Under the pieces are notes generated by a model that was not told the DNA's origin, searched no databases, and saw only the letters and a list, made by a program, of their open reading frames with translations. The position numbers were made by a program, and so were the translations under genes. DNA of 64,000 bases from Mesorhizobium qingshengii (GTDB lineage Bacteria; Pseudomonadota; Alphaproteobacteria; Rhizobiales; Rhizobiaceae), in the NCBI RefSeq assembly GCF_027563465.1, contig NZ_JAPFQA010000001.1:620001-684000 (forward strand). Reading direction: 5' to 3'. Positions 28,378 through 33,183 of the stretch are shown here, piece by piece. How positions within the stretch are numbered: position 1 is the stretch's first letter; each line of letters begins with the position of its first letter.

Positions 28378-30012
<1,635 letters not shown>

Positions 30013-30051
30013 AACAGGTCGCCGCAAGGCGCCCAGGCAGCGTCTGTTCGC

Positions 30052-30396
30052 TCAGTCCGTTGACCTCGCGCACTTTCGCGCGCGCACGGCGACAATGGCG
30101 TCTTGCTGCTGCTTCAGCCGGTCGATCCTGGCCGTTTCACGCTTGGCGACCGCGGTCTTCACGCGAGACCCACCCAATAGCCAATTTGGAACACTGGTGT
30201 TTGCGACCTTGCCGCGGGTGATCGCGGTTTGCGAGATGTCGCGGGCGATGCCTCCCAGCGCGCTGTTGAGCTCGGCGCAGCTCAGGCTTTCATATTTCGC
30301 CGGATCGACGGTTTTGCCGATCGACGAGCAGCCCGCAACGAGAAGCAGCGCGACTGTCAGAACCCGGCGCGACGCTGTCGTTGAAATCAAAGTCAT
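30052..30396 (-). CDS. Small predicted lipoprotein
   Basis: A 114-aa protein with a lipoprotein signal: basic start RRVLT, hydrophobic core, and lipobox LLVAGC, so it is probably anchored by Cys23. The mature part holds short helices (YESLSCAELNSALGGIARD) and a basic C-terminus ending in ARKCARSTD. A Shine-Dalgarno-like GGGGTGCGG precedes the ATG. I do not recognise a named family. It converges on the fused ATPase gene with a 39-base gap. Confidence 0.7.
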   Translation of the reverse strand: MTLISTTASRRVLTVALLLVAGCSSIGKTVDPAKYESLSCAELNSALGGIARDISQTAITRGKVANTSVPNWLLGGSRVKTAVAKRETARIDRLKQQQDAIVAVRARKCARSTD

Positions 30397-30904
30397 ATCC
30401 GCACCCCGGCATCGTCAGTTTCAATGGCTTCATCGCAGCCATCGAACTACCTAGAGCCGACGGTGATTTTCGTCAAAGTCTGTGATCGCGATGGAACCCA
30501 CGCTGGGCAGCGACCATGGCGGCCCGACTCACGAGTTTCCGATTGCAGGAACGTTCTCGATCACCCGTTCAATCACGGGTCCAGGAGCCCTCAGAACTCC
30601 CACTTCATCGTGATATGGTCCGATATCCATACGCGAGGCCGCCACCGCCAGCGACCCGGGCGCTTCCGCACGGGAATCAAAAAGCCAGCCAATTGTTCGC
30701 GTGGTCGCTCAGGGCGTTTTCTTGTCCAGCAGCGTGTTGGCAAAGAATGATGCGGCACGCCGTAGCACGCAGGCGCTACTGCTGCTGCGGAAACCAATTT
30801 GCGCATAGTGGCTCCGGGTCTCGTCACTGCCGCCAAAAGAAACATGCGGCATTACTAATATAAATGCAATTCACCAGGTGAATTTCGCGATCTTGCCAAA
30901 CGGC
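30397..30904. other. Spacer with no supported gene
   Basis: Several short ORFs cross this stretch on both strands. None has a good start signal or recognisable protein features. A minus-strand frame at 30591-30845 begins with a short hydrophobic run but then turns into Arg/Pro-rich sequence, as shadow frames do. The promoter of the lipoprotein gene must lie near 30400-30480. Confidence 0.4.
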
Positions 30905-30929
30905 GGAACATTAGATGCGCCGAATAGTT
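30905..30929 (+). promoter_or_regulatory. GGAAC-N17-GTT promoter candidate (EcfG-type) for the microprotein
   Basis: GGAAC (30905-30909), 17 bases, then GTT (30927-30929). Alphaproteobacterial general-stress sigma factor EcfG recognises GGAAC with CGTT 16-17 bases on; here the base before GTT is A. It lies 117 bases before the microprotein ATG. A near-identical layout occurs upstream of the superoxide dismutase gene. Confidence 0.4.
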
Positions 30930-31045
30930 CTATCTCTTGCACCCGACACCAGGGTTTGGTGTCTGCTGAAGATCAGCTGGCAAAGGCTGGTCGGCCCGCG
31001 TCCTCGCCAGAGGCGCGGGTTTCCCAGGCAACCAGGAGATAGATC

Positions 31046-31120
31046 ATGAACAATATCATTTGGCTCGTTGGAGCGGTGGTCATCGTGATAGCGATATTGA
31101 GCTTCTTCGGCCTCAGATAA
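31046..31120 (+). CDS. 24-residue single-span membrane microprotein
   Basis: A tiny frame with strong support for translation: AGGAG sits nine bases before the ATG, and nearly the whole product is one transmembrane helix (IIWLVGAVVIVIAILSFFG), starting MNN and ending LR. The charge pattern suggests insertion with the C-terminus in the cytoplasm. It has its own spacer and a plausible stress promoter. Very small proteins of this type are common in rhizobia and often missed in annotation. Role unknown; it could modulate a larger membrane protein. Confidence 0.68.
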   Translation: MNNIIWLVGAVVIVIAILSFFGLR

Positions 31121-31387
31121 GCGCGACGTCGGCTATGTCCGTCGGGGCCCCGTCGGAATTTGACCAGTCGAAGCCGACACGGCGAAAGCGCCGCAGGCTG
31201 TCTGCCGAAGACCGATATGATGGCAGGGAGTTGAAGCTGCCTAAGTCGTCAGCGTCTTCAATAGGTGACGACGTACGATGAGATCCTCGGCTTGTACACC
31301 GGGGAAGCGAGTCATCTCGCCCTATTTCCTTGTGGGGAACATCGATTTGAGCGCCAAAGTCGGGATGCGCTAACACATTGTTTTTTC
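31121..31387. other. Spacer between microprotein and tRNA-Pro: no gene seen
   Basis: Holds one compact hairpin, CGGCG-AAAG-CGCCG (31180-31193), which might end the microprotein transcript, though no T-run follows. The short ORFs that cross it on both strands have no protein-like features. Confidence 0.35.
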
Positions 31388-31464
31388 TGGTCGGAGTGGC
31401 AGGATTTGAACCTGCGACCCCCTCGTCCCGAACGAGGTGCGCTACCAGGCTGCGCTACACTCCG
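31388..31464 (-). tRNA. tRNA-Pro (anticodon CGG)
   Basis: On the minus strand this 77-base gene folds as a full cloverleaf. The acceptor stem is CGGAGTG with CACTCCG, the D-arm holds AGCCTGGTAGC, the anticodon stem CCTCG/CGAGG encloses loop TTCGGGA with anticodon CGG, and the T-arm has GGTTCAAATCC. The discriminator A and a genome-encoded CCA end complete it. It reads CCG proline codons, common in this GC-rich genome. I see no integrase or flanking repeat to suggest use as an attachment site. Confidence 0.97.
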
Positions 31465-31582
31465 TGACCAGACCGCGGGCTTATAGCCGCCGCACTCCGA
31501 TCCTGCAAGCGGCAATGGCAGCACTTCTGTCGCATTTCGTCTCCTTTCGTCACGCATGTCGCGGGCGCACTGATATTCCTCA

Positions 31583-31618
31583 GGGATAAACATGGCTTAA
31601 AGGCTTGTGTGCTAGTCA
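31583..31618 (+). promoter_or_regulatory. Element shared with the manC-fusion upstream region (copy 1)
   Basis: GGGATAAACA, two variable bases, then GCTTAAAGGCTTG and TAG six bases further on. The same pattern recurs at 35166-35202. Copy 1 ends 44 bases before the phosphomannomutase start. It probably contains the promoter or an operator, though it does not give a clean -35/-10 pair with normal spacing. Confidence 0.5.
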
Positions 31619-31662
31619 CGGCCTCGACAAGCCGTGTTCCAACTGCTCGGAGTTTTCCAGTC

Positions 31663-33183
31663 TTGACCCTCAGGATCGTTGGCGAGGACCGACCCAACAG
31701 CTTCGAATTCGAAACCTCGGCGCTGATCAAGGCGTCCGGCTTTCGCGAATACGATGCGCGCTGGTGGTTCGGCCATCCGGGCTCGACGCAACCGCCAGAG
31801 CTCAACCTGATCGGCGTCCAGGCGCTTGGCATGGGGCTCGGCACGCTGATTCGCCGTCGCGGCGCCGGACCCGATATCGTCACCGGGCATGATTTCCGTT
31901 CCTATTCGCTTTCGATCAAGCTGGCGCTGGTCTCCGGGCTGATGGCCGCCGGCGCGCGGGTGAAGGATATCGGCCTGGCTTTGTCGCCGACGGCCTATTT
32001 CGCCCAGTTCGCGCTGGATACGCCCTCCGTCGCCATGGTCACGGCCTCGCACAACGAAAATGGCTGGACCGGCGTCAAGATGGGCGCGGCGCGGCCGCTG
32101 ACCTTCGGCCCCGAGGAGATGAGCGCGCTGAAGGCGATCGTGCTGGAAGGCGACTTCGACCTTGCCGGTGGTGGCTCGTATGATTTTGTCCGCGATTTTC
32201 GCGCGACCTATCTCGACGATCTGACCAGGGACAAGCGCATCACGCGAAAGCTGAAGGTGGTCGCCGCCTGCGGCAATGGCACCGCCGGCGCCTTTGCGCC
32301 GGAAGCACTGGAGCGCATCGGCTGCGAAGTGGTCCCGCTCGATGTCGAACTCGACCACACTTTTCCCCGCTACAACCCCAACCCCGAGGACATGCAGATG
32401 CTGCATGCCATCAGGGACAAGGTGCTGGAAAGCGGGGCCGATGTCGGCCTTGGTTTCGATGGTGACGGCGACCGCTGCGGTGTCGTCGACAATGAGGGCA
32501 ACGAGATCTTCGCCGACAAGGTCGGCGTCATGCTCGCACGCGACATCTCCAGCCAGCTTCCGGGCTCGACCTTCGTCGTCGACGTCAAGTCGACCGGCCT
32601 GTTCAACACCGACGGCGTGCTGCGGGAGAATGGCGCAGTCACCGACTATTGGAAGACCGGCCACTCCTACATAAAACGCCGCGTCGCCGAGCTCGGCGCC
32701 GTCGCCGGTTTCGAGAAGTCTGGCCATTTCTTCTTCAACCCACCGATCGGGCGCGGCTATGACGACGGGCTGGTCACGGCCATCGCCATCTGCCAGATGC
32801 TGGACCGCAACCCGGGCAGCTCGATGGCCGACCTCTACCGCGCGCTGCCGCTGACCTTCGGCACGCCGACAATGTCGCCGCATTGTGCGGACGACGTGAA
32901 ATATGGCGTGGTCGAACGGGTGGTTTCGGATTTTCAGGCCATGAAGCGGGATGGCGCCACCTTCGCCGGCCAGAAGATATCGGACCTCATAACCGTCAAC
33001 GGCGTTCGTGTCGTCGCCGAGGACGGCACCTGGGGTCTGGTGCGCGCCTCGTCGAACAAGCCGGAGCTTGTCGTGGTCGTCGAAAGCCCGGTTTCATCAG
33101 AGCGTCGCCGGCAGATGTTCGACGCCGTCGACGCCGTGCTGCGGCGCAGCCCGGAAGTAGGGGCCTACAACCAGACTTTCTGA
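31663..33183 (+). CDS. Phosphomannomutase/phosphoglucomutase
   Basis: A 506-aa alpha-phosphohexomutase that converts mannose-6-phosphate to mannose-1-phosphate, probably for GDP-mannose. The phosphoserine loop is VTASHNENGWTGVK, the metal loop is GFDGDGDRCGVVD and the sugar loop FEKSGHFFF. I use the TTG at 31663 (CGGAGT about eleven bases upstream) because the product then begins TLRIVGEDRPNSFEFE without an unrelated leader; no ATG lies nearby in frame. Its partner enzyme, the guanylyltransferase-isomerase fusion, is 2 kb downstream behind an almost identical upstream element. Confidence 0.92.
   Translation: MTLRIVGEDRPNSFEFETSALIKASGFREYDARWWFGHPGSTQPPELNLIGVQALGMGLGTLIRRRGAGPDIVTGHDFRSYSLSIKLALVSGLMAAGARVKDIGLALSPTAYFAQFALDTPSVAMVTASHNENGWTGVKMGAARPLTFGPEEMSALKAIVLEGDFDLAGGGSYDFVRDFRATYLDDLTRDKRITRKLKVVAACGNGTAGAFAPEALERIGCEVVPLDVELDHTFPRYNPNPEDMQMLHAIRDKVLESGADVGLGFDGDGDRCGVVDNEGNEIFADKVGVMLARDISSQLPGSTFVVDVKSTGLFNTDGVLRENGAVTDYWKTGHSYIKRRVAELGAVAGFEKSGHFFFNPPIGRGYDDGLVTAIAICQMLDRNPGSSMADLYRALPLTFGTPTMSPHCADDVKYGVVERVVSDFQAMKRDGATFAGQKISDLITVNGVRVVAEDGTWGLVRASSNKPELVVVVESPVSSERRRQMFDAVDAVLRRSPEVGAYNQTF

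What the first reader, a model, noticed from the sequence alone, without database searches (positions are those of the whole stretch)
30905..31120. 24-residue membrane microprotein with a stress-type promoter
An excellent ribosome site, a single transmembrane helix and a GGAAC-N17-GTT motif upstream make a good case for a translated, stress-induced microprotein in otherwise empty DNA. Automatic annotation would usually miss it.
Basis: partly seen in the sequence, partly recalled or inferred. Interest (0 to 1): 0.5.

Follow-up and report, generated by a model that had tools for sequence, protein, structure and literature searches.

The report
Stress-promoter 24-residue membrane microprotein
The window holds what looks like a real, easily overlooked gene for a 24-residue membrane peptide that many proteobacteria share and that rhizobia appear to switch on with their general stress sigma factor; here it follows a conserved hairpin-rich RNA.

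Summary
The frame at 31046-31120 belongs to a peptide family almost always exactly 24 residues long (148 of 150 unique loci), found in 114 of 146 same-genus genomes, 52 of 109 genera of the bacterial family and 28 of 212 across the phylum. Eight DNA-selected orthologs differ by 41 synonymous and 5 non-synonymous codons. GGAAC-N17/18-GTT, the R. etli EcfG1 geometry, precedes 96 of 118 Rhizobiales loci; other spacings and shifted windows give background. None of 19 Beta/Gamma or other-class loci has it. Between promoter and start lies a covarying RNA found in 49 of 61 Mesorhizobium genomes, often behind its own such promoter without the peptide. Best reading: a general-stress inner-membrane microprotein, here behind an RNA leader; its target is unknown. 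Prior detection is possible: S. meliloti carries one member, and the published SEP6 (under 30 aa, membrane, translated) fits it, though its sequence was not readable. No Pfam, NCBIfam or Rfam family reaches its cut-off. Evidence here is comparative only.

The parts
30905..30929 (+). EcfG-type promoter: GGAAC-N17-GTT with a partly palindromic core (GGAACATTAG...GAATAGTT)
   Evidence: conserved spacing in relatives; R. etli EcfG1 motif GGAAC-N16-CGTT in PMC3892343 (passages)
30935..31022 (+). Structured RNA leader; transcript start near 30935 is inferred
   Evidence: Three hairpins, -46 kcal/mol, z -3.78, 0 of 200 shuffles as stable
30939..30966 (+). Leader hairpin 1 (not covered by model R1)
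   Evidence: partly supported in the ortholog alignment
30971..30992 (+). Leader hairpin 2, strongest covariation
30993..31021 (+). Leader hairpin 3 (terminator-like stem, weak T-tail TTTCCC)
30963..31025 (+). Match to RNA model R1 (hairpins 2 and 3), a multi-copy family in Mesorhizobium
   Evidence: 76.3 bits; the window is one of the 13 rows that built the model
31034..31038 (+). Shine-Dalgarno AGGAG
   Evidence: AGGAGA invariant in 19 leader orthologs
31046..31120 (+). 24-residue single-helix microprotein MNNIIWLVGAVVIVIAILSFFGLR
31135..31281 (+). 48-aa ORF, probably the eroded form of an 86-aa second ORF
   Evidence: 86 aa in 6 of 27 leader orthologs (L046, L049, L051, L052, L053, L107)

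Best explanation
A sigma-EcfG-type (general stress response) promoter at 30905 drives a short transcript that starts with a ~90-nt three-hairpin RNA leader and then, from a strong Shine-Dalgarno, encodes a 24-residue peptide that inserts into the inner membrane as one helix. Having no soluble domain, no conserved neighbour gene in the loci examined, and a nearly fixed length and sequence across the phylum, the peptide most likely acts inside the membrane during stress, by packing against a larger membrane protein or changing the bilayer. Supported by comparison: a selected coding gene, the conserved EcfG-type promoter signal, the RNA structure. Inferred: transcription start, stress induction, membrane insertion. 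Speculative: the partner (partner binding alone about 0.45).
For: Near-fixed length: 148 of 150 unique loci, all 80 kept named loci. Selection: 41 synonymous versus 5 non-synonymous codon differences in eight orthologs first found by DNA similarity, 23% synonymous expected; pN/pS 0.144 versus 1.17 and 4.42 in the other frames. Promoter: N17 in 81, N18 in 15 of 118 Rhizobiales loci, union 96; every other spacing from N8 to N27 gives 0-5; 29 of 42 upstream-sequence clusters against 1-2 in shifted windows. None of 13 named Beta/Gamma and 6 unnamed other-class loci has it. NepR over its cut-off in the own genome. S. meliloti Ak57 carries one member, 24 aa, with a full GGAAC-N16-CGTT 50 nt before its ATG. 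Hydropathy.
Against: No expression data for this locus. The C before GTT is missing here and conserved in only 24 of 81 motif loci. 22 of 118 Rhizobiales loci lack N17/18, among them several with GGAAC but a different -10. 4 of 11 other Alphaproteobacteria have it, 7 do not. GGAAC is also the -35 type of other ECF sigma factors (recalled). 32 of 146 same-genus genomes have no match, and the second copy of G010 is a 5'-truncated remnant (L018), so the gene is dispensable. No conserved helix face was found (permutation p 0.30), which does not help the partner idea. Protein-profile selection of most loci inflates apparent peptide conservation.
Confidence: 0.82

Rival explanations
1. Dual-output stress transcript: the leader descends from a free-standing EcfG-type small RNA whose T-tail was lost, so that one transcript both acts as a regulatory RNA (whole or processed) and encodes the microprotein. 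This extends rather than contradicts the main reading.
For: The RNA recurs 1-17 times in 49 of 61 same-genus genomes. 42 of 61 examined copies have GGAAC-N17-GTT at 51-62 nt before the model start, against 5 of 180 shifted windows. 97.2% of cells pair, 11 of 18 pairs with double-sided change against 4.3 in shuffles (model-fitted alignment). The 13 copies that run into the microprotein have T-poorer tails (mean 1.77 versus 3.62 in 47 others). In most other genera the peptide sits behind short leaders.
Against: The tails of the free copies are weak for terminators (TTT in 30 of 47), and the window itself keeps TTT (one of 2 of 13). Copies are related, so the test value is not a probability. No RNA was measured and no target sought. 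Of 4 own-genome copies examined only 2 (window, C26) have the exact motif.
Confidence: 0.35
2. The leader is only a cis-acting 5' UTR that tunes stability or translation of the microprotein mRNA.
For: It lies directly before the SD, and the fold of the longer stretch partly pairs bases next to the SD.
Against: 48 of the 61 copies examined are not directly followed by this peptide.
Confidence: 0.4
3. The peptide is a type I toxin-like pore former induced by stress.
For: Size and hydrophobicity resemble such toxins (recalled); several copies in some genomes.
Against: Net charge +1 in 67 of 90 proteins and a nearly fixed sequence; wide conservation; no Rfam antitoxin RNA in the region and no sigma-70-like antisense promoter in 30000-32000. 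An antisense RNA from another promoter type was not excluded.
Confidence: 0.1
4. The conserved palindromic core is a repressor or activator site rather than an EcfG promoter.
For: GGAACATTAG...CTAAT.GTT is an inverted repeat in many Mesorhizobium copies; 11 of 118 regions also match on the reverse strand.
Against: Other genera and some RNA copies (L014, L015, L023) keep only GGAAC and GTT at the same spacing, without the palindrome.
Confidence: 0.08
5. Not translated; the conserved block is RNA only.
For: The leader RNA is itself conserved.
Against: The peptide is conserved without this RNA in most genera; codon-position entropy 0.70/0.23/1.44; synonymous excess.
Confidence: 0.02

Closest known systems
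S. meliloti SEP6 (PMC10117765; passages and sections 23 and 24 read)
   [quoted passage not shown] S. meliloti Ak57 has exactly one member of the family in its 3.7-Mb record, 24 aa and unannotated there.
   Different: SEP6's sequence is in a supplement that could not be read, so identity is unproven. The passages seen mention no stress promoter and no RNA leader for it.
EcfG/PhyR/NepR general stress regulon (R. etli EcfG1 targets, including ncRNA ReC64, PMC3892343, passages seen)
   Same: GGAAC and GTT at the same spacing; NepR present in the genome.
   Different: C before GTT missing here; no mutant expression data.
Stress-induced small membrane proteins such as YohP (Pfam PF25659)
   Same: Short single-helix membrane peptide.
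   Different: One relative scores 12.7 bits against a cut-off of 27; the window protein does not list it.
Dual-function RNAs such as SgrS/SgrT (recalled)
   Same: Structured RNA and small ORF on one short transcript.
   Different: Here the ORF follows the RNA, the RNA also occurs alone in several copies, and regulatory activity is not shown.
Type I toxins such as TisB (recalled)
   Same: Short hydrophobic peptide, stress link.
   Different: Wide conservation, no antitoxin found, toxicity untested.

Membership tests
EcfG (general stress response) regulon | GGAAC and GTT at EcfG spacing upstream | tested here: met
   Window N17; 96 of 118 Rhizobiales loci N17/18
EcfG (general stress response) regulon | Full consensus CGTT at the -10 | tested here: not met
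   AGTT in the window; C in 24 of 81. Hence 'EcfG-type promoter', not proven regulon membership
EcfG (general stress response) regulon | Host encodes the NepR branch of the pathway | tested here: met
   NepR 61.2 bits, cut-off 25.7; EcfG and PhyR themselves were not searched
EcfG (general stress response) regulon | Expression lost in ecfG mutant | not testable with these tools
   No expression data
S. meliloti SEP6 | Under 30 aa, TM helix, conserved in Hyphomicrobiales | tested here: met
   Ak57 member is 24 aa and hydrophobic; family spread in the order (paper)
S. meliloti SEP6 | Same amino-acid sequence or coordinates | not testable with these tools
YohP (PF25659) | Profile score over cut-off | tested here: not met
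   12.7 of 27 bits for one relative; not listed for the window protein at E 1
Type I toxin | Antisense antitoxin RNA | tested here: inconclusive
   No Rfam match, no sigma-70-like promoter; other promoter types not scanned
Type I toxin | Toxicity on overexpression | not testable with these tools
   Bench test
Known Rfam RNA family (leader) | Match at gathering score | tested here: not met
   Only the tRNA in 30400-31700; none in four loci with copies
Dual-function sRNA/mRNA | Conserved RNA structure on the same transcript as an ORF | tested here: met
   Structure; common transcript inferred from position
Dual-function sRNA/mRNA | Base-pairing targets and a discrete RNA species | not tested
   No target search, no RNA data

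The most novel reading that the evidence does not exclude
A multi-copy, EcfG-driven three-hairpin small-RNA family of Mesorhizobium has been captured as the 5' leader of a phylum-wide 24-residue stress microprotein by loss of its terminator tail, giving a dual-output stress transcript: regulatory RNA plus membrane peptide.
Probability: 0.35. Interest if true: 0.75.

Novelty: new member of a known kind. Interest (0 to 1): 0.6.

Why it matters
A 24-residue peptide of nearly fixed length, kept across Alpha-, Beta- and Gammaproteobacteria and placed behind a general-stress promoter in rhizobia, points to an overlooked membrane component of stress survival. It is easily missed: two annotated records (Rhizobium sp. 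T1473, S. meliloti Ak57) list nothing at the site and R. etli 8C-3 lists an antisense 'hypothetical protein' (the plasmid gene tables are incomplete). If S. meliloti SEP6 is the same peptide, translation is already shown and this work adds its regulation, its phylum-wide spread and the RNA leader. Both peptide and RNA are testable in tractable, harmless rhizobia.

Tried and rejected
Sigma-70 promoter scan: none in 30000-32000. Plasmid tblastn with the peptide: no match, but a 24-residue hydrophobic query is probably beyond that search. Neighbour clustering in 80 loci: apart from a cluster that I read as ORFs overlapping the peptide itself, no cluster spans more than 12 loci, and those look like lineage synteny. 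Conserved helix face: not significant. Genome-wide motif count as evidence: rejected. The 86-aa downstream ORF as DUF3606-like: suspected, no Pfam hit at E 1. PDB sequences: no hit. PHROGs: only hits of E 0.05 or worse. S. meliloti 1021 pSymA and pSymB: no match.

Literature: peptide strings of the window gave 0 papers. Strings of relatives plus two DNA strings gave 69 papers; the 20 listed hit only the 10-mer GGAACATTAG, the other 49 were not seen. Topic searches were seen as listings. Of PMC10117765 I saw passages and sections 23 and 24; of PMC5596092 (M. huakuii sRNAs) and PMC3892343 passages; of PMC5082802 a term search without hits. No supplements were readable. Whether M. huakuii candidate sRNAs coincide with the leader RNA was not checked.

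Full report
What is there. The window lies in a 6.5-Mb genome whose genus I infer to be Mesorhizobium from named relatives at the same locus. At 31046-31120 (+) an ATG frame of 24 codons encodes MNNIIWLVGAVVIVIAILSFFGLR, with AGGAG 7 nt upstream. GGAAC at 30905 and GTT at 30927 are 17 nt apart. The peptide is strongly hydrophobic (Kyte-Doolittle maximum 2.82; all 90 unique relatives scored at least 2.6).

Is it a gene? A 401-nt DNA search hit 16 of 61 genomes, all same-genus; some of those hits are only the RNA part or only the ORF. Peptide profiles then matched 114 of 146 same-genus genomes (E 0.01), 64 of 297 genomes and 28 of 122 genera in the order (E 0.01, with a few weak partial hits inside long frames), 66 of 151 genomes and 52 of 109 genera in the family (E 0.001), and 47 of 398 genomes and 28 of 212 genera in the phylum (E 0.01). 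Counted from the ATG or GTG at family position 1, all 80 are 24 aa; of 150 unique loci pooled, 148 are 24 and 2 are 25 aa. G9, V12 and G22 are invariant in 145 unique ORFs. Eight orthologs first found by DNA similarity differ from the window at 41 codons synonymously and 5 not, where 23% of random single changes would be synonymous. pN/pS is 0.144 in frame and 1.17 and 4.42 in the other frames for 55 MNNIIW-type ORFs (0.30, 1.02 and 2.48 for all 145). Against: 32 of 146 same-genus genomes have no match, and one second copy is a 5'-truncated remnant.

Is it under the stress sigma factor? A single motif is weak evidence: the genome has 338 matches, fewer than the 712 of the reversed pattern. Across 118 unique Rhizobiales loci (own locus excluded) GGAAC-N17-GTT lies within 250 nt upstream in 81, N18 in 15 (union 96), N16 in 0 and any other spacing from N8 to N27 in 0-5. 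Shifted windows, tested for N16-17, give 0-9, shuffles 0.86, and the reverse strand of the same region 11, which I attribute to palindromic cores. In 42 clusters of similar upstream sequence 29 carry N17/18, against 1-2 in shifted windows. Of the 32 loci outside Rhizobiales, 0 of 13 named Beta/Gamma and 0 of 6 unnamed other-class loci have it, 4 of 11 other Alphaproteobacteria do, and two contigs labelled Scytonema and Solirubrobacterales do not (split made by hand). PMC3892343 (passages) gives GGAAC-N16-CGTT for R. etli EcfG1, and its abstract calls EcfG exclusive to the class. The C is absent in the window and present in 24 of 81. NepR is encoded in the genome; EcfG and PhyR were not searched.

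A possible earlier sighting. PMC10117765 reports S. [quoted passage not shown] The 3.7-Mb record of S. meliloti Ak57 holds exactly one family member, MNQIIYLVGLVVIVIAILSFFGLS, unannotated there, with GGAAC-N16-CGTT 50 nt before its ATG. pSymA and pSymB of strain 1021 have none. SEP6 is therefore a strong candidate for the same peptide, but its sequence was not readable.

The RNA leader. The 88 nt after the promoter fold into three hairpins (-46 kcal/mol, z -3.78). A 64-position model of hairpins 2 and 3 finds copies in 49 of 61 same-genus genomes, up to 17 in one and 5 in this genome. Forty genomes of other genera in the family give three marginal hits. On the model-fitted alignment 97.2% of cells pair and 11 of 18 pairs show double-sided changes, against 4.3 in shuffles and 1-2 in slid controls. 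Of 61 copies examined, a chosen part of those found, 42 have GGAAC-N17-GTT at 51-62 nt before the model start, against 5 of 180 shifted windows. Thirteen run directly into the microprotein and 48 do not; some precede other small ORFs. The nine bases after the stem are T-poorer in the 13 (mean 1.77) than in 47 others (3.62), though the window keeps TTT. The copies share ancestry, so no probability should be read from this. It suggests that an sRNA with a weak terminator-like tail became a read-through leader.

How it probably works. Under stress, EcfG released from NepR would transcribe the locus; the leader folds; the peptide is made from a strong SD and inserts into the inner membrane. Topology is a guess from the C-terminal arginine. 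With no conserved neighbour in the loci examined and no conserved helix face (p 0.30) the target is open. I favour modulation of a membrane protein or of the bilayer over toxicity, because the peptide is selected, widespread and nearly fixed in sequence.

Known or new. No Pfam or NCBIfam model reaches its cut-off (best E 0.032 and 0.011), nor Rfam its gathering score; PDB sequences and PHROGs gave nothing convincing. The kind (a stress-linked small membrane protein) is known. The peptide may be SEP6's family; its EcfG-type control, phylum-wide spread and RNA leader were not found described in the searches listed.

Noticed in passing
L249, L247, L248 (own genome C28, C26, C27); loci: The leader RNA is a multi-copy family in Mesorhizobium, up to 17 copies in one genome, absent from Rfam, often behind an EcfG-type promoter.
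   Followed up: partly
L196/L020, L028/L192; similar starts in L251, L254, L260: Copies of the RNA precede a different small ORF (about 54 aa, M..KPATTYVV.VFEKPHWRT...), suggesting a modular EcfG-RNA-small-ORF cassette.
   Followed up: no
L213, L214, L218: RNA copies about 50 nt upstream of a 141-aa ORF (M..QT.DQLHA.ADI.PL...).
   Followed up: no
31135-31281; L046, L049, L051, L052, L053, L107: A second ORF of 86 aa follows the microprotein in 6 of 27 leader orthologs; in the window it is 48 aa and looks eroded. No Pfam hit.
   Followed up: partly
L023, after the RNA: A second GGAACATTAG...GTT and a further GC-rich hairpin follow directly: possibly tandem stress RNAs.
   Followed up: no
30905-30929 and relatives: The promoter core is palindromic (GGAACATTAG-N6-CTAA..GTT) in many Mesorhizobium copies but not in other genera; unexplained.
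   Followed up: partly
L270 1463-1639 (R. etli 8C-3 pRsp8C3a): An annotated 'hypothetical protein' lies antisense over a divergent family member (MNNIIWLVDAIVIVLAVLGFFGLR), probably a mis-call.
   Followed up: partly
L279 (CP090106.1): The record is labelled pSymB but is 3.7 Mb long, which suggests a chromosome or fused replicon under a wrong label.
   Followed up: no
30052-30396 (-): A 114-aa ORF with a lipoprotein-like start (ALLLVAGCSS) lies upstream on the other strand; weak lipobox hit only.
   Followed up: no
31388-31464 (-): tRNA-Pro (CGG) gene downstream.
   Followed up: no
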